Shown: positions 18,707 to 32,434 of the stretch, in pieces
How positions within the stretch are numbered: the first letter of the stretch is position 1
How the letters are laid out: every line of letters begins with the position of its first letter
Assembly: GCF_001650025.1 (NCBI RefSeq)
Contig: NZ_LVVY01000119.1
Span: 1 to 64,000 of the forward strand
From: Devosia elaeis
GTDB lineage: Bacteria; Pseudomonadota; Alphaproteobacteria; Rhizobiales; Devosiaceae
Direction of reading: 5' to 3'
DNA length: 64,000 nt
The notes under the pieces: generated by a model
Told to the model about the DNA's origin: nothing
The model's input: only the letters and a program-made list of their open reading frames with translations
Databases searched by the model: none
Program-made: the position numbers and the translations under genes

Positions 18707-19369
18707 ATGTCCAACACAACCGAACCGGGCAAGACGCGAGGGCAAAATGCCTATGGAGCCATTCTGGCGGCGATCAGGGACGGGATATATCGGCCGGGTG
18801 ACGCAATACGCGAGGAAGAGGTTGCCAGCCGTATCGGCGTCAGCCGTACGCCGGTCCGCGAGGCTTTGGGCCGCCTGCAGGAGAAGGGTCTTGTCGAGGC
18901 TGCCCAGGGCCGGGGCGTCGCGGTCGCCATCCTATCGACCAGCCAGGTTTTCGAGCTTTATGCCATCCGCCAGGAAATGGAGGGCCTGGTTGCGCGCTTC
19001 GCCGCCCAGCATGCCACCACGGCCGAGATGGACAACCTGGCGCGCATCAACGACCTGTTCGGGAACGCGTCCGACAACCCCAGGCGGGCCGCCGAGCTCA
19101 ATCGGCAGTTCCATGCCCGCCTCTACGATGCAACGCGCAATCGCTATCTGCGCCAGATGGTTGAGGGGCTGCAGGAGACCATTGCGCTGTTGCCGACGAC
19201 CACCTTCGTCCAGCCGGGGCGTACCGAAATCGCCCGCGAGGAACATGCCGAGATCATCCGGGCCATCCGGGAGCGCGACACGGAGCGGGCCGAAACGGCC
19301 GCTGTCCGGCACATTCAGCGCGCGCTGGAAACCCGCCTCGCGATCAGCGAGGATCGGCCGGCCATCTAG
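18707..19369 (+). CDS. GntR-family (FCD) regulator of the organic-acid cluster
   Basis: 220 residues. The winged HTH (about 12-78) shows GIYRPGDAIREEEVASRIGV, SRTPVREALGRLQEKGLVE and QGRGVAVA, the GntR pattern. The FCD all-helical ligand domain follows (about 85-210), with metal-ligand type residues in NRQFHARLYDATRN and REEHAEIIRAI. FCD regulators usually sense organic acids and bind TTGTATACAA-type sites. Such sites occur at 11940, 18668 and 23372, so this protein probably controls the transporter and catabolic genes on both sides. Its end overlaps the convergent CoA-transferase by 26 bases. Confidence 0.9.
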   Translation: MSNTTEPGKTRGQNAYGAILAAIRDGIYRPGDAIREEEVASRIGVSRTPVREALGRLQEKGLVEAAQGRGVAVAILSTSQVFELYAIRQEMEGLVARFAAQHATTAEMDNLARINDLFGNASDNPRRAAELNRQFHARLYDATRNRYLRQMVEGLQETIALLPTTTFVQPGRTEIAREEHAEIIRAIRERDTERAETAAVRHIQRALETRLAISEDRPAI

Positions 19370-20741
19370 GCCGGTCTGAGCCAAGACGAACGGGGCCGCG
19401 ATGCCATCGCTGTGGCACCGGCCCGACCTGCAACGCCGGCGACAAGGCACGCACGAGGCCGAAGGGCGTCTCGTATTCGGCCGTCAGGTCGGCAGTATCC
19501 TCAGCGACGGGATTTGTGGCGGGGAGGTCGGTATCGTCGCCCAGCCGGTCGCGCCACGTCCACATCCATTGTGCCGTACCTGCCAGGGAGAGGTCGACGG
19601 CCCAGTTCCCGCCGGTTTCGACCGAGCGGATCAGCGCCACCATGGCGCCGAAGGCGGCAAGATAGCCTGTGAGATAGTCCAGCGGCTGGCAGGGCAGCAA
19701 GGCCGGCTCGCCATTCCGGCCCGGCATGGCGAGGCCCATTGTCGCCTGGACCAGACTGTCGTAGCCGCGGCGATCCGCCCAGCCGGTTCCGCCGGGAAAT
19801 GCCGACAGGTCGACGCTGACCAGGCCGGGCCGCCGGGCGAACATTTCCTGCCGCGTCAACCCGCGCCGGCCGAGACTTTGCGGCCGGTAGGCATCGATGA
19901 AAACGTCCGCCTCGTCCAGCAGCGATAGCAGTGTGTGGTAGTCCGCCGGGTCACGCAGGTCCAGGTAGCTCGATAGCTTGCCGAAGCCCGTATCGATGAC
20001 CAATGACTCGATAAAGGGCAGGTCGGGCCGGCTCACCAGCATGGTGGTGGCGCCGTGTTCGGCCAGCGTGCGGCCGGCCATCGGACCGGCGATCACCCGC
20101 GAGAAGTCGAGGACTTTTAGGCGCCCCAGCGCCGTGCCATCGGCCGTCGGCGGCCAGACCCGGCGTGGCGCGTCCCCGCAGGAGACGACCGAAAGCACCG
20201 GCGTGTCCGAAACCGCCGCGGCAAGCGGTGTTGCCTGCCACTGTTCCCGGCTTCGAACCTTCGCCGCGCACAGCCCGCGCTCGATTGCTTCTGCCTCGAT
20301 GTCGGAGGCATTGCGCGCCGCGACCACCAGGCGCACCGCTTCGGGGTCGTTGCCAGTGCCGAGCATGTCGAGCAGTCCGTCGCGCAGATGCGGGAAATTG
20401 CCGTGCAGATAGACGTATTCGCCATTCCGCGCCGGATAAAACCCTGTGAAGGGATCGCGGAACTTGGCATTGCGGCCGTCGCGCTGCAAATAGCTGGAGC
20501 TGCACATGGCCAGTTCTGCGGCGCGCGAGCTGAGCCTGACATCCGGTCGTTTCCCCGTGCGCAGCGTCTCGATATGCGAGGCCGCCAGGCCCACGGCAGC
20601 AAGGACGGCCATGGCCATCGGCGCGATCGGCCAGGGGGTCGCCAGCACCTTCCTGTCCCATTCGAGGTGGAGGCGGTCGAGCAGAGCATCGTCCCAACCG
20701 GCCTGCCGCAACAGGTGTTCGAGTATGGCCTCGACGCTCAC
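19344..20741 (-). CDS. Class III CoA-transferase (CaiB/BaiF family)
   Basis: 465 residues from GTG 20741, chosen because it overlaps the upstream stop as GTGA; a longer frame to 20951 runs inside the upstream gene. Family features are LKVLDFSRVIAGPMAGRTLAEHGATTMLV and IDTGFGKLSSYLDLRDPADY, followed by the LSLLDEADVFIDAYRP and LSAFPGGTGWADRRGYDSLVQA segments. The usual catalytic Asp after the R-x-G-R motif is not obvious. Enzymes of this family move CoA between organic acids without a free ester intermediate. Here it would activate the product of the flavoprotein and isomerase steps. Confidence 0.85.
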   Translation of the reverse strand: MSVEAILEHLLRQAGWDDALLDRLHLEWDRKVLATPWPIAPMAMAVLAAVGLAASHIETLRTGKRPDVRLSSRAAELAMCSSSYLQRDGRNAKFRDPFTGFYPARNGEYVYLHGNFPHLRDGLLDMLGTGNDPEAVRLVVAARNASDIEAEAIERGLCAAKVRSREQWQATPLAAAVSDTPVLSVVSCGDAPRRVWPPTADGTALGRLKVLDFSRVIAGPMAGRTLAEHGATTMLVSRPDLPFIESLVIDTGFGKLSSYLDLRDPADYHTLLSLLDEADVFIDAYRPQSLGRRGLTRQEMFARRPGLVSVDLSAFPGGTGWADRRGYDSLVQATMGLAMPGRNGEPALLPCQPLDYLTGYLAAFGAMVALIRSVETGGNWAVDLSLAGTAQWMWTWRDRLGDDTDLPATNPVAEDTADLTAEYETPFGLVRALSPALQVGPVPQRWHRGPVRLGSDRPRWPADPR

Positions 20742-21868
20742 CGTACTGCCACCTCGCCCCGCATCAGCAGGCGCGCCGTGCGCAGCACGGAAGCTGAGCG
20801 GGCATGCCATCGGCCGGCATCCCGTAAAACGTCGGCGCCGACCTCGACGATGCCGGATGGATTGCCGACGCGGATCGATCCCGCACGGCGATCGCGCGCG
20901 GCAAGCCGGGCTGCCAGCGTTCCATCGATGCGGGCGGCGACGGCGAGGCACATGGCGCCGGTCAGCGTCACCGCGCCATGCACCCTTTCCATGGATATGA
21001 TCCTGATGCCGATGTCATGCTCCGCAGCGCGGACCACCTGCCCGCTCAGGGTCGCGACATCGGCGGGACCGGAGATCATCGCCACCTTGGGATTGGCGAG
21101 GCCGACGGCATCGGGTGTCGCCCCCAGTCCCATCCGCACGCCGGCCACGCGCCGTATTTGGTCGAGCCGCGCCATCACGTCACGGCGCTGTTCGATTGCC
21201 GCAGGCAGTTCGGTCCCGGTCAGCCCCAGGCTGGCAGAGGCCACGAACACTACCGGATTGCAGGCATCGACAAGCGACACCTCATATGCCGTTCCATCCA
21301 CCTCGATGGTTTCGAGCTCGGTGCCGCTGGGCAGCAAGGCGGGAGTCACCGTTGCCCCGGGATCAAGGAAATCGAGCGTGATTGGCGCGCCTGTGCCGGC
21401 CACCCCACCGATCGCACAGGCCCCTTCCACCACGGCAAGGCCGCCCGCAACCGCGAAACGGGCGTGGATCAGCTTGCGTGTATTGACCTGGTGGATGCGG
21501 ATGGTCGCCATGCCGTCTTCGACCCGGACCAGCCCCTCGTCGACCGCAAAGGGGCCGATGGCCGAGGAGAGATTGCCGCAATTGGCACCCCAATCCACGA
21601 CCGGCTGCGAAATGGCGACTTGCGCAAAGGTATAGTCGATATCGGCGCCGGGGATCGTCGGCGGCCCGACAATGGCAGCCTTGGAGAGCGAGGAGACGCC
21701 GCCGCCCATCCCATCGAGCTGCCGCCCGAACGGGTCTGGGCTGCCAAGGATGGCCAGCAGCATGCGATCGAGCTGGGCAGGGTCCGCAGGGCAGTCGCGC
21801 GCATGCAGCATCACGCCCTTGCTCGTGCCGCCCCGGTAGAAAGCCGCCTTGACGAAACGCTGCTTCAT
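20738..21868 (-). CDS. PrpF-family isomerase (2-methylaconitate/oxalomesaconate type)
   Basis: 376 residues from ATG 21868, one base after the upstream stop; an in-frame ATG at 21889 is also possible. The N-terminus FVKAAFYRGGTSKGVMLHAR is the PrpF signature. The active-site loop is GANCGNLSSAIGPFAVDEGL, and the second half has MCLAVAARIDG. NCGN is the PrpF-like form, while the paralogue at 15273 has SCGN, so the two probably act on different unsaturated acids. It is translationally linked to the flavoprotein upstream and to the CoA-transferase downstream. Confidence 0.85.
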   Translation of the reverse strand: MKQRFVKAAFYRGGTSKGVMLHARDCPADPAQLDRMLLAILGSPDPFGRQLDGMGGGVSSLSKAAIVGPPTIPGADIDYTFAQVAISQPVVDWGANCGNLSSAIGPFAVDEGLVRVEDGMATIRIHQVNTRKLIHARFAVAGGLAVVEGACAIGGVAGTGAPITLDFLDPGATVTPALLPSGTELETIEVDGTAYEVSLVDACNPVVFVASASLGLTGTELPAAIEQRRDVMARLDQIRRVAGVRMGLGATPDAVGLANPKVAMISGPADVATLSGQVVRAAEHDIGIRIISMERVHGAVTLTGAMCLAVAARIDGTLAARLAARDRRAGSIRVGNPSGIVEVGADVLRDAGRWHARSASVLRTARLLMRGEVAVR

Positions 21869-21869
21869 G

Positions 21870-23363
21870 TCATTGCGCGGCCGCGCCATAGCCAGCGCGG
21901 CGCCCAAAAACCGCGCCGGATGTGAGACCCGATCCACCCGGATAGCCGTTGAAGAACACGCCGCCGACCAGCTCACCGCAGGCAAAGAGCCCGGGGATTT
22001 CGTGCCCCTCTTCGTGAACGACTCCGCCCCTATCGCTCACCTGCAATCCGCCATAGGTGAAGGTTATGCCCCCGGTTACGGGATAGGCCCGGAATGGACC
22101 TTTATCGATCTTCTGAGCCCAGTTCGATTTGGGAAGCGTCAGCCCCTTCGTGCCCTTGCCATCCCTGACGGTCGGATCGAAGGGCACGGCATCGTCAACG
22201 GCGGCGTTATAGCCGTCTATCGTACGACGCAGCTTGGCCTTGTCCTCGACGCCGTCGAGTTTCTCGATCAATGCGTCGAGCGTTGCCGCTTCAACATAAT
22301 GAGCATCGGCGAAATGATATTCCTCGTACAGGAGGTGGTTGATCTTGGAATCGAAGATCTGCCAGGCGAAGTGGCCAGGCTGCTCGATGATTGCGCGCCC
22401 GAACTGGGCATAGGTATAGTTGCGGAAGTCCTTGCCCTCGTCGACAAAGCGCTCGGCTTCCGCATTGACCATGATGCCGAGGAAGTAGCAGATCTTGCGA
22501 TAGTTCTTGCGCTGGTCGTGCGGCAGGTCGAGATTGCCGTATTCCGGCATGTGCAAATCCATCGGGGTCGCGTGGCAGCCCTCGTACAGGCCATGGGCCC
22601 GCGCCCCAAGCTTGAAAGCCATTTCCAGGCCGGCGCCGGTATTGAACGGGGTGCCGCGCACCTTGGCCTTGCCCCAGTCCTCGCCGATATATTTTTCGCG
22701 CAGCGCCTTGCTGGCCTCGAAGCCGCCGCAGGCGAGCACGACAGCCCTGGCGCGGATGTCTTCGCGCTGGCCGGCGTCGTTTTCGGTCACCACGCCGCAG
22801 ACGCGACCCTCCTCGACGATCAGGTCGATTGCCGCGCAGTCGAAGCGGATTTCGCCACCCAAGGCACGCAGGGCCTTCATCTCCGATTCCACCAGGCCGA
22901 CGCCTTCATGCCGGGCGGCCAGCGTCAGGCCGCCCCAGAAGATGTGTTTGCCGTCCTTCTGGAAGGTCTGGCGTGAATAGATCGGCTCGAACCGCACGTC
23001 ATGCGACGCCAGCCAGGCCATTGTGGGATAGCTCTGCGCCACGAGGTACTGCTGTTCCGGGCTGAGCGGCCGGCCATCATTGAAGCCCAGCAGGTCCTTG
23101 CTGAAATGCTCGGACGTATAGGCGCCGAATTCTGTGTCGGGCAGCCGGTGATCGTCAGGGTTCTGCAGCAGCGGCAGGAGATCCTGCTTGCCGTCATAGG
23201 CGAAGCGCATCGCGCCGGCGGTATATTTGGAATTGCCGCCTGCCATGTCCTCGGGCGCCTTTTCGATCACGAGGACCGTCGCGCCGCGTTCCTTCGCCGC
23301 CAGGCCGGCACATAGAGCGGCATTGCCCGAACCGACAACGATTACGTCATAATCAGACATCAC
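21870..23363 (-). CDS. FAD-dependent tricarballylate dehydrogenase-like flavoprotein (TcuA/FumC-type)
   Basis: 497 residues. FAD binding is shown by YDVIVVGSGNAALCAGLAAK and VLVIEKAPEDMAGGNSKYTAG. The fumarate-reductase-type catalytic core follows, with GLTLAARHEGVGLVESEM, VVLACGGFEASKALREKYIG and the C-terminal ITFTYGGLQVSDRGGVVHEE then VFFNGYPGGSGLTSGAVFGRRAG. This is the TcuA/CobZ family, whose best-known member oxidises tricarballylate to cis-aconitate. No TcuB-like electron carrier is seen here, which is a gap for that role. A perfect TTTGTATACAAA palindrome lies 9 bases before the start. It heads the isomerase/CoA-transferase operon. Confidence 0.85.
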   Translation of the reverse strand: MMSDYDVIVVGSGNAALCAGLAAKERGATVLVIEKAPEDMAGGNSKYTAGAMRFAYDGKQDLLPLLQNPDDHRLPDTEFGAYTSEHFSKDLLGFNDGRPLSPEQQYLVAQSYPTMAWLASHDVRFEPIYSRQTFQKDGKHIFWGGLTLAARHEGVGLVESEMKALRALGGEIRFDCAAIDLIVEEGRVCGVVTENDAGQREDIRARAVVLACGGFEASKALREKYIGEDWGKAKVRGTPFNTGAGLEMAFKLGARAHGLYEGCHATPMDLHMPEYGNLDLPHDQRKNYRKICYFLGIMVNAEAERFVDEGKDFRNYTYAQFGRAIIEQPGHFAWQIFDSKINHLLYEEYHFADAHYVEAATLDALIEKLDGVEDKAKLRRTIDGYNAAVDDAVPFDPTVRDGKGTKGLTLPKSNWAQKIDKGPFRAYPVTGGITFTYGGLQVSDRGGVVHEEGHEIPGLFACGELVGGVFFNGYPGGSGLTSGAVFGRRAGYGAAAQ

Positions 23364-23701: not shown

Positions 23702-25252
23702 TCAGGGCAGAGCCGACCGAGGGAGTGCGGCTGACAGATCAGCTACGCCGATAATTCCGGCGTCGCCGCCCAGTGCTGCCGGTTGGATATTCGGGCGCAG
23801 ATGGTCGGGTTCCAGCGACAGCCGGGCGACCAGGTGGTCACGAAATTGCGGCAGCATGCCGATGCCACCGCCCAGCACCACGACCTGCGGATCGATCAAT
23901 CTTTGCAGATCGCCCAGGGCTACAGCCAGGTCCTTGACCACCTGGTCGAGCAAGGCCCCTGCCCATGGCAGGCCATTTTCGACGGCTGCGAAAATCTCAT
24001 GTGTCGTGGCGGCATGGCCCAGAGCGGCTGCCGACGCGACCATGCCGAAACCCGAAGCGCGCGCTTCGAGACGTTCCGCCGCCGGTGCACCTCTGATCTG
24101 ACCCAGGCTGCCGGCAAGGCCATTGGCGCCCTGCAGCAGCCTGCCCTGCAACACGATCCCGCCGCCAATGCCCGACGACACGGTGACAAATACCATGTCC
24201 CGCGCGCGCCCGGCCCCATGGCGATACTCGCCCCAGGCCGCGGCCTGCGCATCGTTTAGGGCGATGGCCGGCGCACCGAACAGCGTGGTCAGCCGCTGGG
24301 CCAGCGGCGTGCGCTCGGGAATGGCCAGCGTGCGCGGATTGAGCGCCGACCAGTGACCATCCCATACGACGCCGGTCACGGCGGCGCCGACAGCGTCGTA
24401 GCGCCCCTGCCAGTCGGAAGCCAACAAGCCGATCGTGCTGAACCATGCATCCGTCCCAACGCCCTGCGGCGTCTTTATCGCCTGCCGTTCGAGAATTTCC
24501 CCGTTTCGGACCAGCGCCGCCAGCGTCTTGGTTCCGCCGACATCGAGCGCCAGCACCGTGGCCTTGCTGCCGCTGACCGCCTCATCCACGGCACTACGGA
24601 ACCATTCGGTGACGTGCTCGGTGCGCGTGATGGCCGAGCCGACACAGACCGCACTGGCGCCTGCGGCAATGGCCGAGGCTGCCGCGGCGGGGGTATTGTA
24701 GCGTCCCTCGGCCACGACCACGCCGCCCAGCCGGCGGCAAGCCGCCACGAAATCGAGGTCGGGCCCGGCCGGAACAGGCCCGCCGGTATAGCCCGACATG
24801 GTAGTGCCCAGAATATCGAAGCCGAGCCGGCTGGCGATCCTGGCTTCCGCTTCCGTCGCCAGGTCGGCCATCGCCAGAGCTCCGGCGGCGTGGATGGCCG
24901 CCAGCAGGTCGGCCACCGGCACCGGACGGACCCGGTCGGTGCCATCAACGGCGATGACCGTCGCTCCGGCCGCTGCAAGCGCCTTTACGTCATCGATGAA
25001 CGGGGTGATGCGCACCGCGCTATCCGGCAGGTCGCGCTTGATAATGCCGATGATCGGCAGGTCGCAGGCCCTGGCCACGGCCGCCACATTGTCCGCACCC
25101 TCGATGCGCAGGGCACGGGCGCCTCCATTGCGGGCGGCCTGAGCGAAGGCGACGATAGCGGGGATCGTATCGAGCGGACCACCATCGACCGGCTGGCAGG
25201 AAACGATCAGGCCACCCTGGAGATCGGTCAGGAATTGGGCATTGTGCGGCAC
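23702..25252 (-). CDS. NanE-NanK fusion: ManNAc-6-phosphate epimerase and ROK-family kinase
   Basis: 516 residues from GTG 25252, preceded by AAGGA. Residues 1-225 are a NanE TIM barrel: GGLIVSCQPVDGGPLD, LPIIGIIKRDLPDS, ATVIAVDGTDRVRP, ALAMADLATEAEA, GFDILGTTMSGYTGG. Residues 230-510 are a ROK kinase: VLALDVGGTKTLAALV, the catalytic-Asp segment ALNDAQAAAWGEYRHGAG and VSSGIGGGIVLQG. The ROK zinc site is lost: the usual GH and CxCGxxGC are replaced by LGQIRGAPAAERLEARASG. Together the domains would turn ManNAc into GlcNAc-6-phosphate after sialate cleavage. It is last in the Dpp-type importer operon. Confidence 0.87.
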   Translation of the reverse strand: MPHNAQFLTDLQGGLIVSCQPVDGGPLDTIPAIVAFAQAARNGGARALRIEGADNVAAVARACDLPIIGIIKRDLPDSAVRITPFIDDVKALAAAGATVIAVDGTDRVRPVPVADLLAAIHAAGALAMADLATEAEARIASRLGFDILGTTMSGYTGGPVPAGPDLDFVAACRRLGGVVVAEGRYNTPAAAASAIAAGASAVCVGSAITRTEHVTEWFRSAVDEAVSGSKATVLALDVGGTKTLAALVRNGEILERQAIKTPQGVGTDAWFSTIGLLASDWQGRYDAVGAAVTGVVWDGHWSALNPRTLAIPERTPLAQRLTTLFGAPAIALNDAQAAAWGEYRHGAGRARDMVFVTVSSGIGGGIVLQGRLLQGANGLAGSLGQIRGAPAAERLEARASGFGMVASAAALGHAATTHEIFAAVENGLPWAGALLDQVVKDLAVALGDLQRLIDPQVVVLGGGIGMLPQFRDHLVARLSLEPDHLRPNIQPAALGGDAGIIGVADLSAALPRSALP

Positions 25253-25272
25253 GGATCGCTGTCCTTCAGGCG

Positions 25273-26240
<968 letters not shown>

Positions 26241-26241
<1 letters not shown>

Positions 26242-27248
26242 CAGAGTTCCTGCCAGCGGATGCAGCGGCTTTTCTGCGTCGGCGTCGTCTCGACCAAAGC
26301 CGGCATGGCGGCGCTGCAGGCGGCGATGGCGTAGTCGCAGCGATTGGCAAAGGCGCAGCCCTTGGGCAGGTTGCGCAGTGACGGCACATTGCCGCGAATG
26401 GTGGGCAGGGGCGTGCCGGCGCGTTTGAGCTCGACCGCCTGGCCCAGCCGGGGCACCGAGCGCAGCAGGCCCTTGGTATAGGGGTGCCGAGGATGGGCGA
26501 AGACCTCCGCCACTGGCCCCGACTCGACGATCCGGCCGGCATACATCACCACGACCCGGTCAGCGATCTCGGCCACGACACCCAGATTGTGCGTCACGAA
26601 CAGGATGCCCATGCCGCGCTCGCGCTGCAGCTTCTGCAACAGATCGAGGATCTGGGCCTGGATCGTCACGTCGAGCGCCGTGGTCGGCTCGTCGGCAATC
26701 AGCATGCGCGGATCGCAAGCCAGCGCCATGGCGATGGTCACCCGCTGCCGCATGCCGCCAGAAAGCTCGTGCGGATATTGCTGCGCCCGGCGGGCGGGGT
26801 CGGGAATGCCGACATCGGCCAGGAGGCGCACGGCATCGGCCGCCGCCTCGCGATGCGGCTTGCCCAGATGGATGCGGATCGGCTCGGCGATCTGCTCGCC
26901 CACGGTATAGACGGGGTTGAGGCTGGTCATGGGTTCCTGGAACACCATGCCGATGTCATTGCCCCGAATCTGGCGCAGGGTTTCGTCGGACATGGCGGCA
27001 AGGTCGATGACCTCGCCGCTCTTGCGCGACAGCATGACCTTGCCGGCGGCGATGCGGCCCACGCGCCTGGGCAGCAGGCCCATCACCGACAGGCTCGTCA
27101 CTGACTTCCCCGACCCGGATTCGCCGACCAACGCCACGGTTTCACCAGCGGCGATGGTCAGTTCCATGTCTTCGACGGCGGCAATGTCGGCGCCGCCGAT
27201 CCGGAACACGGTCCGCAGTCCAGCAATGTCGAGGATCGGGGCGCCCAT
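26241..27248 (-). CDS. Dpp/Opp-type ABC transporter ATP-binding protein (DppD-like)
   Basis: 335 residues. Walker [20 protein letters not shown]-loop [20 protein letters not shown], signature [15 protein letters not shown], Walker [17 protein letters not shown] and H-loop [10 protein letters not shown] are all present. The C-terminal extension contains the [15 protein letters not shown] cluster. It is the DppD half of the heterodimeric ATPase. It starts 2 bases after the aldolase stop and is followed directly by dppF. Confidence 0.92.
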
Positions 27249-27250
27249 GG

Positions 27251-28168
27251 TCAGCCGAGTAGTCCGACGGCTTTGAGCACGGCGTCGACCTTGGCCGTTT
27301 CTTCGTCATTGAGGTGGCGCTGCGGTCGCGCCATGGTGTTGTTGGCAATGATGCCGAGTTGGCGCATCGCGGTCTTGAAGGCACCGACACCGGCCGAACC
27401 GGCGCTGGTGCGGGCCGTCGAAATCCAGACAATCTCGAACAGCTTGCAGAGTCGCTCCTGCTCAGCACGCGCGCCGGCGAGATCGCCTGCCTGCACCAGG
27501 TTCCACAATTTGACATAGCCATGCGGGTCGACATTGGCGAGGCCAGGCACGACTCCGTGGGCGCCCATGGCCAGCACACTATCAACCACGATTTCCGAGC
27601 CGGTCATGCCGAAGAAATCGGCATCGTCCTGCATGTCGGCGAGCACATAGCGCAGGTTGCCGTCGTCGCCGCTCGAATCCTTGAGACCAACGATGGCGCC
27701 TTCCTTGGCCAGCGTCACCGTGGTCTTGCGGTCGAGCTTCAGCCCCACGCAGACCGGAATGTCATAGGCGATGACGGGCAGGTCCACCGCATCCTTGATG
27801 TAGCGGAAGTGGTCCACGGTCTCGGCCTGGTTGGTCCGCGTGTAAAAGGGCGCGGTCACGACCACGGCAGCGGCGCCGGCCGCCTTGGCGATGCGCGAAT
27901 GCTTGATGACGCGGTCGGTGGTGGGGTCGATCGTGCCGACCAGCACCGGAACGCGGCCATCGGTGACCTTGATGGCATGTTCGACAATGGCCTGGCGGGT
28001 TTCTGAATCGTGGAACACCACTTCGCTGGTCGAACCGAGCACGAACAGGCCGTGGACACCGGCATCGATCAGGTTTTCGAGCACCCGGGTAAAGGACGCA
28101 TAGTCCACGGTGAAATCGGTGTTGAGTGGCGTTACGACGGGAGGGACGACGCCGGTAAACAAGGGCAT
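27251..28168 (-). CDS. N-acetylneuraminate lyase/dihydrodipicolinate synthase-family aldolase
   Basis: 305 residues from ATG 28168, preceded by GAAGG. The TIM barrel shows [10 protein letters not shown], the carboxylate-binding GSTSE at 45-49, the catalytic Tyr135 in VIAYDIPV and the Schiff-base Lys163 in VGLKDSSGD. The family splits 2-keto-3-deoxy sugar acids or condenses pyruvate with aldehydes. Its place between importer genes, with NanE-NanK in the same operon, makes a sialate-lyase role (Neu5Ac to ManNAc and pyruvate) the best guess. Housekeeping DapA is unlikely in this context, but a keto-deoxy sugar-acid aldolase remains possible. Confidence 0.85.
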
Positions 28169-28185: not shown

Positions 28186-29070
28186 TCAGTTGAGAGCGGA
28201 GCGAGGGTCGAACGCGTCGCGCAGGCCGTCGCCAATGAAATTGATGGCCAACACGGTCAGCACCAGGGCCGCGCCGGGGAACATCCATTGCCAGGGATAT
28301 TGTTCGAGCACGACGGTGGAGCGCGCCAGGTTGAGCATATTGCCCCAACTGGCCTCGGGCGGCGCGATGCCCAGTCCGAGGAAGGACAGGCCCGCTTCGA
28401 GCAGGATGGCATTGGCGACCTGCAGAGTGGCGTAGACCACCAGGATGTCGATGCAATTGGGCAGACCGTGCTTGAACAGCAGATGGGGCACGCCGGCGCC
28501 CATGCCGCGCGCCGCCACGACGAAATCGCGCTCGCGCAGTTCGAGGAGACGCGCGCGCACCATGCGCGACAAAGTGGGCCAGGACAGTAGTGAGATCACC
28601 AGAATCGTCGGCGTGATGCCGGTGCCGGCAATCGAGGCGAGGACCAGCAAGAAAATCACCGGCGGCAGGGTCATGGCGAGATCGACCAGCCGCATGAGCG
28701 AGGCATCGACGACCCGACCACCGAAGCTGGCAAAGGAGCCGACGAGGAAACCGATGACGGTGGAAATCGCCACCGAGACGACGGCCACGATCAGCGAGAC
28801 CCGGCCGCCCTGCAACAACCGCGCCATAACATCGCGGCCCACGCCGTCGCTGCCCAACCAATGTTCAGGCGACGGCCCCTTGTTGAGCGCGCGCAGGTCG
28901 ATCTCATTTGGCCCCGAGCCCCACCACCAGTCATAGGTGATGATGGCCACAAGGATGGGCAGGAAGATCGCCAGCCCGACCATGGCCGCGCGATTGCCGA
29001 AGAAGCGCTCGATGGAGCGGCGGGTCGGACCCTTGGTCCGTTCGATGGGGGCGGTCGCTGCATCGGTCAT
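28186..29070 (-). CDS. Dpp-type ABC transporter permease (DppC-like)
   Basis: 294 residues. An N-terminal cytoplasmic OppC-N segment ([21 protein letters not shown]) precedes the membrane domain. The linker [21 protein letters not shown] is the DppC signature. The EAA loop region is [13 protein letters not shown]-like ([24 protein letters not shown]), and the C-terminus ends [14 protein letters not shown]. It forms the channel with the DppB-like subunit, whose stop lies one base upstream of this start. Confidence 0.92.
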
Positions 29071-29071
29071 G

Positions 29072-30031
29072 TCAGGCCACCTGGATGCGCGGATCGACCG
29101 CGGCGTAAGTGATATCGGTCAGCAGGTTCACCGCGATCACGCAAGCGCCAACGATCAAGGTGGCGCACATGATGACGGGGTAGTCGCGCGTGTTGACCGC
29201 ATTGACCAAGAGCAGGCCCATGCCCGGCCAGTTGAAGACGCTTTCGAGGAAGATAGCGCCACCGACTGCAATGCCGATGGTCGAGCCGATCAGGGTGACC
29301 ACGGGCAGCAGCGCATTGCGCGTGGCATGCTTGATGATGACCCAGAATTCTCGGACGCCCTTGGCGCGGGCGGTGCGCACATAGTCCTGGTTCAGCACTT
29401 CGAGCAGCGATGAGCGCATATAGCGCATGATCAGCGCGGCATGGCCGATGGAGAGCAGGAAGGCCGGCAGGATGAGATGCGACAGCAGGTCGGACACGGA
29501 AAATGGGGCGCCCGGCGTCAACATGCCGCCCGAAGGCGCCCAGCGCAATTGTACCGAGAAGAAATAGAGGCCGAGCAAAGCGGTGAGGAAGGCCGGGCTC
29601 GATATGCCAATGGAGGAGGCGACCGAGAGGGCGACATCGGTCGCCGAATTGCGACGTACGGCGCTGACAATGCCGGCGGCGATGCCCAGCACGATGGCGA
29701 GCAGCATGCCCGTCCCCATCAGCAACACCGTCGGCCCGATGCGCTCGAGCACCAGCGGCAGCACGGGCACGCCGGCGCGCTGGATGGAAAAGCCGAAATC
29801 GCCTGATATGGCGGCCCGCAGCCAACCGAAATATTGCACCGGCAGCGGCTGGTCGAGCCCCAGCCTTGTTCGCAAGGCAGCGAGTTCATCCATCGAGAGC
29901 GGCGCGGCAGGATTGATATAGGCGTCGATGGCATCACCCGGTGCCAGGCGTAGCAGCACGAAGACGAGGACGCTGAGAGCGACCAGCATCAACAGTCCGA
30001 TGCCGATACGGCGTGCGATGTAGTTCAACAT
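29072..30031 (-). CDS. Dpp-type ABC transporter permease (DppB-like)
   Basis: 319 residues. It starts [20 protein letters not shown], with the first membrane helix, then RLAPGDAID and the [23 protein letters not shown] segment specific to DppB. The EAA loop is [29 protein letters not shown]. The end, [13 protein letters not shown], is typical. It is the second membrane subunit of the importer. Confidence 0.92.
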
Positions 30032-30100: not shown

Positions 30101-31687
30101 TTACTTGATATCCCAGAGTTCAGGATGGGCGGCGAAGGGGCCACCAGCCGGCGCCGGCGTCCAGACGAAGTCGACCAGGTCGGCAGATGCCACGCCATAG
30201 CGATTGGCGACCCACATGGTGGCCCAGGGCAATTGCTCGTTCATCACCTTGCAGACGTCCTGCCAACGGGCATCGACCTGGCTGGCATCGGTCTCGCCGA
30301 TGGCGGCGTCGAAAGCGGCGCTCAGATCGTCGAACTCGATGCGCATGATGTTGGCGCCGGCCGGCGGCAATTGCGACTTGTTGAGGCCGACATTGATCCC
30401 CGCCGGGTTGGGCCCGTTCTGCAGGCCCGCATAGATCAGCGGGAATTCGTTCCAGTCAGGGTTGTTCTCCTGATAGACGGTGCCGTTATAGGTCGGCACG
30501 TCGACCACGCGCGGTACGACATTGACGCCGACCTGGGCCAGCATGGCCTGCACTGCAGCCATCACATTGGCGGCCTGGGGCGAGCCGTAATAAGTCAGCC
30601 AGGTGATCGGCTTGTCGCCGTTGATCTCGGCCCAGCCGGCTTCGTCGAGCAGCGCCCTGGCCTTTTCCGGATCATAGGCGTAGTCGTTGAGACCATCAGG
30701 CACCAGATGGGGCGCGACATAGCCGCAATTGGCGAGCTTGGCGGCACCACCATAGAGGCTTTCCACGATCGCGGCGCGGTCGATGGCATACATGAAGGCC
30801 TGGCGGACACGAACGTCCTTCCACAGATCAACCTTCTGGTTGAAGCCGATATAGTTGACCACATAAGAGTCGCCTTCGATGACCCTGAAGGCCTCGTTGC
30901 CGGCAAAGGTCGCAGCATCTTCCGGTTCGACATAGGTGAACTGGATTTCACCGGCGCGCAGCGCGGCCACCGCGGCAGCCGGGTTCTCGAAATAGCGGTT
31001 GATCAGCCGGTCAACCTTGGGTGCGCCGCCACGATAGTCCTCGTCAGCCGCCAGTTCGACATACTGGTCGGTGACATATTTGGTGAACTTGAAGGGGCCG
31101 GTGCCGATCGGGGTGGTCGACCACCAGGTGCTGGTGGCGATGCTCTCGGGCGCGACCGAAGCCAGGGCATGCTCGGGCAGGATCATGACCTGGGCCAGCA
31201 CCGACAGCAGGCCACCATCAGCCTCCGACAGTGTCACGACGACAGTACGATCATCGGGCGCCTCTACATTGGCGACCTTGCCCAGGCGACCGGTAAAGAC
31301 GCTGCCCGAGGCGGCGTCGCGGATCAGGTCGAGGGTGAACTTGACGTCGGCAGCGGTGAAGGCCTCGCCATCGTGCCAGGTCTCTTCGGCCAGGTTGAAG
31401 GTATAGGTCAGCATGTCTTCGCTGACAGTGTAATCGGTGGCCAGAGCGCCCTCGATGGCGTTCAGTTCCGCATTATAGATTACCAGCGGCTCGAAATAGG
31501 TGTTGAGCCAGGTAAAGCCACCGGTGGCGGCGAGCGGATTGAAGTTCTTGGGGAACCCGCCAGGACCGACATCGAAACCGCCGGTAATGGTCTTCGCATC
31601 CTGCGCGAAGGCCGGCGTGGTGAGTGCAGTGGCACCAAGCAGCAGGCCACCAATGGCCAGGGCTTGCGTGATCGTCCTGATATGCAT
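30101..31687 (-). CDS. Dpp-type ABC transporter substrate-binding protein (SBP family 5)
   Basis: 528 residues with a Sec signal peptide (ALAIGGLLLGATALTTPAFAQ) and a GGAGG site before the ATG. Family 5 features include NFNPLAATGGFTWLN, YTFNLAEETWHDGEAFTAADVKFT, GTGPFKFTKYV and the late segment EKARALLDEAGWAE. It binds the imported compound in the periplasm. Family 5 proteins bind peptides but also sugars, opines and sialic acid (SatA). The operon content favours a sugar acid here. It is the first structural gene after the GntR regulator. Confidence 0.9.
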   Translation of the reverse strand: MHIRTITQALAIGGLLLGATALTTPAFAQDAKTITGGFDVGPGGFPKNFNPLAATGGFTWLNTYFEPLVIYNAELNAIEGALATDYTVSEDMLTYTFNLAEETWHDGEAFTAADVKFTLDLIRDAASGSVFTGRLGKVANVEAPDDRTVVVTLSEADGGLLSVLAQVMILPEHALASVAPESIATSTWWSTTPIGTGPFKFTKYVTDQYVELAADEDYRGGAPKVDRLINRYFENPAAAVAALRAGEIQFTYVEPEDAATFAGNEAFRVIEGDSYVVNYIGFNQKVDLWKDVRVRQAFMYAIDRAAIVESLYGGAAKLANCGYVAPHLVPDGLNDYAYDPEKARALLDEAGWAEINGDKPITWLTYYGSPQAANVMAAVQAMLAQVGVNVVPRVVDVPTYNGTVYQENNPDWNEFPLIYAGLQNGPNPAGINVGLNKSQLPPAGANIMRIEFDDLSAAFDAAIGETDASQVDARWQDVCKVMNEQLPWATMWVANRYGVASADLVDFVWTPAPAGGPFAAHPELWDIK

Positions 31688-31708: not shown

Positions 31709-32434
31709 TCAGGCTTTGGATGGTTCTGTGCGGTTCCTGGCAATGACCTGCTGGATGCCGCGGTAGTGATCGTCCAGGCGCTTGCGCGCCTGCTCCACGT
31801 CCTTGCGAGCGACCGCTTCGACGATTTCGTGATGGTCCCGCCACGTATCGAGCGGTTCAGGGTTGTCGAGATCGTTGAAGTTGGAGGCCTTGTTGAAGGC
31901 CGTCCAGAAGATATCGATCAACGCGCTCAACATGTGATTGTTCTGGCAGCGGAACAGCAATTGGTGGAAGCGCTGGTCCTCCTCGGCGAAGCTCTCCTGC
32001 CGCTCCGCCCGCACCTTCATGCGCGCCGTGACATCACGCAAAGCGGCCAGATCCGCCTCGCTGATCATGGCGATGGTCTTGCCGATCAGCCCGGTCTCGA
32101 GCACGCGGCGGATTTCGCGCAATTCCTCGACGTCGCGCAGCGAGTCCTGCAAGCCATAGGCCAGGTTATCGAGCAGCGGCTTGAAGGAGAATTCCTTGAC
32201 GAAGACGCCGATGCCGCGCCGCGTCTCAAGGATGCCCAGCGATTCCAGCGCCTTGATCGCCTCGCGCATGGAATTGCGCCCGACGCCCAATTGCTGGGCC
32301 AGGAAAGTTTCGGGCGGCAGAGGATCGCCGGCCTTGAGCTGATTGGCCTCGATATATTCCTTGAGACTCTCCTGCACTGTGACGTGAAGGAGAGGGGCCC
32401 GGCTCAACGGCGTCATCGCTTTCAAATTCGACAT
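31709..32434 (-). CDS. FadR/GntR-family (FCD) regulator
   Basis: 241 residues. The HTH region (about 15-80) reads LKEYIEANQLKAGDPLPPET, FLAQQLGVGRNSMREAIKAL and the wing LGILETRRGIGVFV. The FCD domain (about 95-225) has EEDQRFHQLLFRCQNNHML. It is the first gene of the Dpp/aldolase/NanE-NanK operon and is divergent from two Gfo/Idh genes across 118 bases. It probably represses both directions until its ligand, perhaps a sialate-derived sugar phosphate, appears. Confidence 0.9.
   Translation of the reverse strand: MSNLKAMTPLSRAPLLHVTVQESLKEYIEANQLKAGDPLPPETFLAQQLGVGRNSMREAIKALESLGILETRRGIGVFVKEFSFKPLLDNLAYGLQDSLRDVEELREIRRVLETGLIGKTIAMISEADLAALRDVTARMKVRAERQESFAEEDQRFHQLLFRCQNNHMLSALIDIFWTAFNKASNFNDLDNPEPLDTWRDHHEIVEAVARKDVEQARKRLDDHYRGIQQVIARNRTEPSKA

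What the first reader, a model, noticed from the sequence alone, without database searches (positions are those of the whole stretch)
23702..25252. NanE-NanK fusion whose ROK domain has lost the zinc motif
Epimerase and kinase are joined in one 516-residue chain. The ROK half keeps the ATP and Asp motifs but replaces the GH/CxCGxxGC zinc site with LGQIRGAPAAERLEARAS. The ROK zinc site normally shapes the sugar pocket, so the substrate range or fold may differ. Fusion would also pass ManNAc-6-phosphate directly between sites.
Basis: partly seen in the sequence, partly recalled or inferred. Interest (0 to 1): 0.55.

Follow-up and report, generated by a model that had tools for sequence, protein, structure and literature searches.

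The report
Fused sialic-acid enzymes, zinc-free kinase half
Two neighbouring steps of bacterial sialic-acid breakdown are joined in one protein whose kinase half lacks the usual zinc site, but both features are shared with many related soil bacteria and zinc-free kinases of this type are already known to work, so this is a mild variant and not a surprise.

Summary
On the minus strand, 23702-25252 encodes one 516-residue chain: NanE epimerase (Pfam 233 bits), then a ROK kinase (156 bits), no frame break. The ROK half keeps DVGGTK, Asn333-Asp334 and Glu396, but has Ser382 and Gln385 where E. coli NanK has His153 and His156, and no zinc cysteines. The two features are separate. Zinc loss is old: in a 114-row ROK tree a 50-row alphaproteobacterial clade has no zinc cysteine, 30 rows fused and 20 not. 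Fusion is nested in that clade and was gained or lost about five or six times. The window's operon (SBP5-OppBC-lyase-OppDF) also occurs in Burkholderiales next to separate, zinc-bearing NanK, so zinc loss need not mean a new substrate. Published zinc-free NanKs are active, and kinetics do not track zinc. Both halves are under purifying selection and model well onto NanE and NanK structures. Best reading: a working, zinc-independent NanE-NanK fusion for sialic acid or ManNAc catabolism in a Devosia-like bacterium. Channelling is unsupported. Activity is inferred, not shown.

The parts
23702..25252 (-). NanE-NanK fusion gene (516 aa, GTG start)
   Evidence: translation; Pfam; fused relatives
24575..25252 (-). 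NanE (ManNAc-6-P 2-epimerase) half, residues 1-226
   Evidence: Pfam NanE 233.4 bits; NCBIfam NF002231 271 bits, over its cut-off of 189; 55% identity to S. enterica NanE 3igs in the fold search
23705..24556 (-). ROK (NanK-like) half, residues 233-516
   Evidence: Pfam ROK 155.5 bits; best solved relatives are NanK 6jdc and 2aa4
24065..24109 (-). shortened loop that replaces the ROK zinc site, residues 382-396 (Ser382, Gln385, no Cys, Glu396 kept)
   Evidence: alignment of 125 ROK domains
25262..25266 (-). AAGGA ribosome-binding-like site before the GTG start
   Evidence: sequence printed
25273..26241 (-). ABC ATPase, OppF type (context)
26241..27248 (-). ABC ATPase, OppD type (context)
27251..28165 (-). 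DHDPS-family lyase, NanA-like (context)
   Evidence: Pfam DHDPS; best solved relative 5c54 'Dihydrodipicolinate synthase/N-acetylneuraminate lyase', E 4e-74
28186..29070 (-). ABC permease, OppC type (context)
29072..30031 (-). ABC permease, OppB type (context)
30101..31687 (-). solute-binding protein, family 5 (context)
31709..32434 (-). GntR/FCD regulator (context)

Best explanation
The gene encodes a working bifunctional enzyme for sialic-acid or N-acetylmannosamine catabolism. Inferred steps: an Opp-type ABC importer brings in a sialic acid; the DHDPS-family lyase releases ManNAc; the C-terminal ROK half phosphorylates ManNAc with ATP, using Asp334 as base, without zinc; the N-terminal NanE half turns ManNAc-6-P into GlcNAc-6-P; NagA- and NagB-like enzymes elsewhere in the genome finish the job. 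The zinc site was lost long before the fusion, in an ancestor of most of the alphaproteobacterial NanKs sampled, and the shortened loop holds the pocket without metal. The fusion arose later, by joining abutting or overlapping nanE and nanK genes, and chiefly ties the two activities in one-to-one amounts.
For: Domain content and intact frame. Asp237, Asn333, Asp334 and Glu396 are invariant in 125 of 125 aligned ROK domains. In the 114-row tree set, 52 rows have no zinc Cys: 30 fused, 22 not; 50 of them form one alphaproteobacterial clade (SH-aLRT 85) and 2 are betaproteobacterial; all 55 zinc-bearing rows are unfused. None of the 52 zinc-free rows keeps the zinc-ligand His (position 385), against 54 of 55 zinc-bearing rows, so His and Cys went together. 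Fusion is common: 19 of the 47 matched genomes out of 397 searched in the order and 20 of 79 named loci. The operon is kept with the fused gene in Devosia, Solirhodobacter, Rhizobium Root1334 and Microvirga arabica, and with separate zinc-type NanK in L113, L148 (Paraburkholderia) and L152 (Duganella). A fused gene sits beside nagA in Microvirga ossetica. nagA-like and nagB-like genes occur in the window's genome. Purifying selection acts on both halves. Confident model (pLDDT 93.7, pTM 0.82) matching NanK and NanE structures. Zinc-free NanKs are active in print.
Against: The ROK half falls below NCBIfam's NanK cut-offs (208 of 283 and 184.3 of 450 bits), so ManNAc specificity is inferred. Gln385 and Ser382 replace residues that bind ManNAc in other NanKs; FnNanK keeps its His, so it is an imperfect precedent. 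The lyase falls below NanA cut-offs and resembles a lyase that also has DHDPS activity. Other fused loci, such as the one in Rhizobium anhuiense, sit with a second, sugar-type ABC transporter, so the imported substrate may vary. No biochemical data exist for this protein that I know of.
Confidence: 0.85

Rival explanations
1. The zinc-free ROK half has shifted to another sugar (for example GlcNAc, glucose or mannose).
For: Both pocket positions next to the former zinc site differ from NanKs of known activity (Ser382, Gln385); the NanK equivalog cut-offs are missed.
Against: The chain joins it to NanE, whose substrate is the NanK product; the operon carries a NanA-like lyase; the same operon type uses zinc-bearing NanK in Burkholderiales; Microvirga arabica has His at 382 in the same operon; in print, kinetics do not track zinc.
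Confidence: 0.08
2. The ROK half is no longer catalytic and serves as a scaffold or sensor for NanE.
For: Two conserved sugar-pocket residues are changed; ROK regulators without kinase activity exist (general knowledge).
Against: ATP motif and catalytic Asp intact; pN/pS 0.27 over the ROK half. The genome's best ROK match (L001) does have a zinc site and could be another kinase, so a back-up kinase is not excluded.
Confidence: 0.05
3. The fusion channels ManNAc-6-P directly from the kinase to the epimerase site.
For: The two sites are on one chain with a short linker of about ten residues.
Against: Fusion was gained or lost at least five or six times on the trees, as expected of a low-barrier event between abutting genes; no measurement bears on channelling.
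Confidence: 0.1

Closest known systems
Zinc-free NanK of Fusobacterium nucleatum (PDB 5nck) and Staphylococcus aureus (6q26-6q28)
   Same: ROK fold, ATP and Asp motifs, no zinc cysteines; model match Z 33.2 (5nck) and Z 27.8-29.0 (6q26, 6q27)
   Different: Separate proteins, only about 22-26% identical; FnNanK keeps Glu156 and His159 in the pocket, here Ser382 and Gln385
E. coli and Pasteurellaceae NanK (2aa4, 6jda-6jdo)
   Same: Closest solved relatives of the ROK half by sequence and fold
   Different: They carry the CGCGxxGC zinc ligands (His153/His156 named for E. coli) and are not fused
NanE, ManNAc-6-P 2-epimerase (3igs, 5zjp, 4utu)
   Same: N-terminal half, over the NCBIfam cut-off, Z 29-32
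   Different: Stand-alone enzyme
Mammalian GNE, UDP-GlcNAc 2-epimerase/ManNAc kinase
   Same: An epimerase joined to a ROK ManNAc kinase
   Different: Unrelated epimerase domain and substrate, biosynthetic direction, zinc present (from general knowledge; start of the abstract of PMC2742894)

Membership tests
NanE (PF04131 / NF002231) | score over the curated family cut-offs | tested here: met
   233.4 vs 27 bits; 271 vs 189 bits
NanE (PF04131 / NF002231) | catalytic Lys and Glu (numbering recalled: Lys66 and Glu180 of CpNanE) | tested here: met
   Lys72 and Glu182 are invariant in 9 of 9 fused rows and align with a Lys and a Glu of 4utt
ROK superfamily (PF00480) | Pfam score, DxGGT ATP motif and catalytic Asp | tested here: met
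   155.5 vs 22.9 bits; Asp237 and Asp334 in 125 of 125 rows
Canonical zinc-binding ROK kinase | ExGH and CxCGxxGC zinc motif | tested here: not met
   Ser382, Gln385 and no Cys. Accepted ROK members FnNanK and SaNanK also lack the cysteines, so this does not bar ROK membership
NCBIfam NanK models (NF003461, NF047821) | score over the curated cut-off | tested here: not met
   208 vs 283 and 184.3 vs 450 bits; these are still the best kinase models for this half
Zinc-free NanK of the F. nucleatum kind | no zinc Cys but the sugar-binding His kept | tested here: not met
   Cys absent as in FnNanK, but the His is Gln385 here, and 0 of 52 zinc-free rows of the tree set keep it
ManNAc kinase (function) | phosphorylates ManNAc | not testable with these tools
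   inferred from fusion partner, operon and relatives only

The most novel reading that the evidence does not exclude
The alphaproteobacterial NanK clade rebuilt its sugar pocket without zinc and without the shared zinc/sugar histidine, using a short metal-free loop with Gln or Leu (and Ser in the window's subclade). This would be a second way of holding ManNAc, distinct from that of the F. nucleatum enzyme, possibly with relaxed N-acyl or sugar specificity suited to non-host sialic acids in soil.
Probability: 0.2. Interest if true: 0.35.

Novelty: new variant of a known kind. Interest (0 to 1): 0.2.

Why it matters
It shows that the ROK zinc site, often called a signature of the family, is dispensable across a whole bacterial lineage of NanK-like kinases, and that nanE-nanK fusion and zinc loss are separate events. 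In two annotated records the fused protein is named only as an epimerase, so kinase counts in such genomes can be too low.

Tried and rejected
Rejected: pseudogene or frame artefact (intact frame). Rejected: zinc loss as a result of fusion (20 unfused zinc-free rows in the same clade). Rejected: fold change. Set aside: channelling (no evidence either way).

Led nowhere: the paper search for nanEK-type terms listed mostly papers that only share the letters of the terms, and none of the 20 listed was read. No paper describing a NanE-NanK fusion was seen in the search listings, nor in term look-ups in PMC2693436, PMC10570557, PMC8482478 and PMC3658417. These searches cover only the held library. 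From memory, unchecked, UniProt holds entries named 'putative bifunctional enzyme NanE/NanK' for some alphaproteobacteria. The S. aureus NanK paper and the comparative NanK paper could not be read (look-ups by recalled DOI found nothing held), so their results are taken from the review PMC10017367 (passages).

Limits: the samples were gathered with the fused protein or an alignment of fused proteins as query, and the named set is 79 loci from the best 80 of 563 confirmed stretches, so the share of fusions is inflated. Rows dropped before the ROK tree: loci without a kinase match, duplicates removed by script to give 125 rows, then near-copies removed to give 114. In 'sep' means not fused, including two loci (L038, L065) where no NanE lies in the fetched DNA. 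The NanE tree has 110 rows; near-copies, distant NanE rows and loci whose NanE is not next to NanK were left out by a list in the script. The trees are quick searches with a midpoint root, several deep branches have support under 95, and warns of long branches (L135 with L104 and L123). An attempt to search the genus of L143 failed on its argument form and was not repeated.

Full report
What is there. The finding lies on the minus strand. window:23702-25252:- translates to 516 residues from a GTG start with no internal stop, 20 nt after the stop of the upstream ABC ATPase gene and with an AAGGA 9 nt before the start. Residues 33-223 match Pfam NanE (233.4 bits) and 234-506 match Pfam ROK (155.5 bits). 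NCBIfam names the first half a ManNAc-6-P 2-epimerase (271 bits, cut-off 189). For the second half its NanK models are the best kinase matches but stay under their cut-offs (208 of 283, 184.3 of 450 bits).

The zinc site. Against solved NanKs the ROK half loses the stretch that carries the cysteines. In an alignment of 125 ROK domains it keeps Asp237, Asn333, Asp334 and Glu396, each present in 125 of 125 rows. It has Ser382 and Gln385 at the positions of His153 and His156 of E. coli NanK. The F. nucleatum NanK paper lists these positions as sugar contacts, and says that the second His binds both zinc and ManNAc in the human enzyme (PMC5458393, passages).

Is it special to this protein? No. Of the 114 rows used for the ROK tree, 55 carry the zinc cysteines (none fused), 7 carry some of them (none fused) and 52 carry none (30 fused, 22 not). 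Fifty of the 52 form one clade (SH-aLRT 85), whose named members are alphaproteobacteria; two betaproteobacterial rows (L104, L123) look like a separate loss. The His at position 385 is kept in 54 of 55 zinc-bearing rows, in 1 of 7 partial rows and in 0 of 52 zinc-free rows, which fits its role as a zinc ligand. Zinc loss therefore seems to precede fusion and not to depend on it. The tree, built without the zinc columns, needs at least six changes between fused and unfused states; the NanE tree needs five.

How common is the fusion? In the window's order 47 of 397 genomes matched at E 1e-40, and in 19 of these the match covers both halves in one open frame. One further case came from 6 matching genomes of 385 in the class. 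Of 25 matching genomes of 398 in the phylum, 20 lie outside the class and none of those has an open fused frame. Among 79 named loci 20 are fused. Fused genes also lie on large replicons of Rhizobium and Microvirga, where the product is named only as an epimerase. The closest named relative is Devosia sp. Root436 at 86% identity, so the window comes from a Devosia-like bacterium. The share of fusions in the named set is biased upwards, as the query was fused.

How fusion arises. In most unfused loci the two genes abut or overlap by a few bases; in fused proteins the last NanE helix runs into the first ROK strand over roughly ten residues. Joining such genes is easy, which fits repeated origin.

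What it does. Upstream on the same strand lie a GntR/FCD regulator, a family-5 solute-binding protein, two Opp-type permeases, a DHDPS-family lyase and two Opp-type ATPases. The lyase best matches a solved 'Dihydrodipicolinate synthase/N-acetylneuraminate lyase' (5c54, E 4e-74), which I recall to be the C. glutamicum enzyme CgNal. CgNal is a Neu5Ac lyase that also shows DHDPS activity (PMC5380162, passages). This operon is kept with the fused gene in Devosia Root436, Solirhodobacter olei, Rhizobium Root1334 and Microvirga arabica. It also occurs in two Paraburkholderia loci (the regulator was seen in one of the two) and one Duganella locus, where NanE and NanK are separate and NanK has the full CGCGRxGC site. 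The same pathway context thus works with either kind of kinase, which argues against a change of substrate. In Microvirga ossetica the fused gene is next to a SIS-domain gene and nagA. The window's genome has a nagA match over the cut-off and nagB-family matches. Not every fused gene sits in this operon: of the 20 fused named loci the lyase was found within 8 kb in 4, and in Rhizobium anhuiense the fused gene has its own sugar-type ABC transporter beside the Opp operon.

Is it alive? Between the window and Devosia Root436, pN/pS is 0.148 for the NanE half, 0.268 for the ROK half and 0.242 for the loop region, which is small. The model from 61 aligned sequences has mean pLDDT 93.7 and pTM 0.82. 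The ROK half aligns with E. coli NanK at Z 36.4 (278 residues, 1.8 A) and with zinc-free FnNanK at Z 33.2, and the NanE half with V. cholerae NanE at Z 32.2. The fold is not changed.

What is known. Zinc-free NanK is not new. The F. nucleatum and S. aureus enzymes lack the site, and a comparison with zinc-bearing NanKs found that kinetic differences did not correlate with zinc (PMC10017367, passages). What differs here is the fusion, the loss of the histidine as well, and the Ser at the first sugar contact in the window's subclade. I saw no description of this fusion in the searches listed under Tried and rejected.

Verdict. The two unusual features are unlinked, widespread and most likely compatible with ordinary ManNAc kinase activity. 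Activity itself is inferred. Interest is low, with one modest open question: how the zinc-free pocket of this lineage holds ManNAc.

Noticed in passing
L010 / L046 (window's genome, contig C1, about 77258-77833): A second NanE (about 43% identical) lies beside an ORF that looks like a BadF/BadG-type GlcNAc kinase (judged by eye, no family search), with nagA about 13 kb away on the same contig: a second amino-sugar locus that may use a different kinase family.
   Followed up: partly
L030, relative in the same family: NanE and ROK are in the same frame but separated by a single TGA, a state next to fusion or fission.
   Followed up: no
L031, L042, L112, L119, L124, L136: A separate clade of NanKs with a half-eroded zinc site (one or two Cys left, His replaced by Phe or Ala).
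   Followed up: partly
L104 and L123 (betaproteobacteria): NanK-like kinases without zinc cysteines and with Arg at the zinc-His position, apparently an independent loss.
   Followed up: no
window 19344-23363, minus strand: Tricarballylate-dehydrogenase-like (over the TcuA cut-off), PrpF-like and CoA-transferase family III genes follow downstream on the same strand, probably another catabolic unit.
   Followed up: no
L003 and L008 (window's genome): Two other ROK proteins of this genome also show no CxCG zinc motif (read by eye).
   Followed up: no
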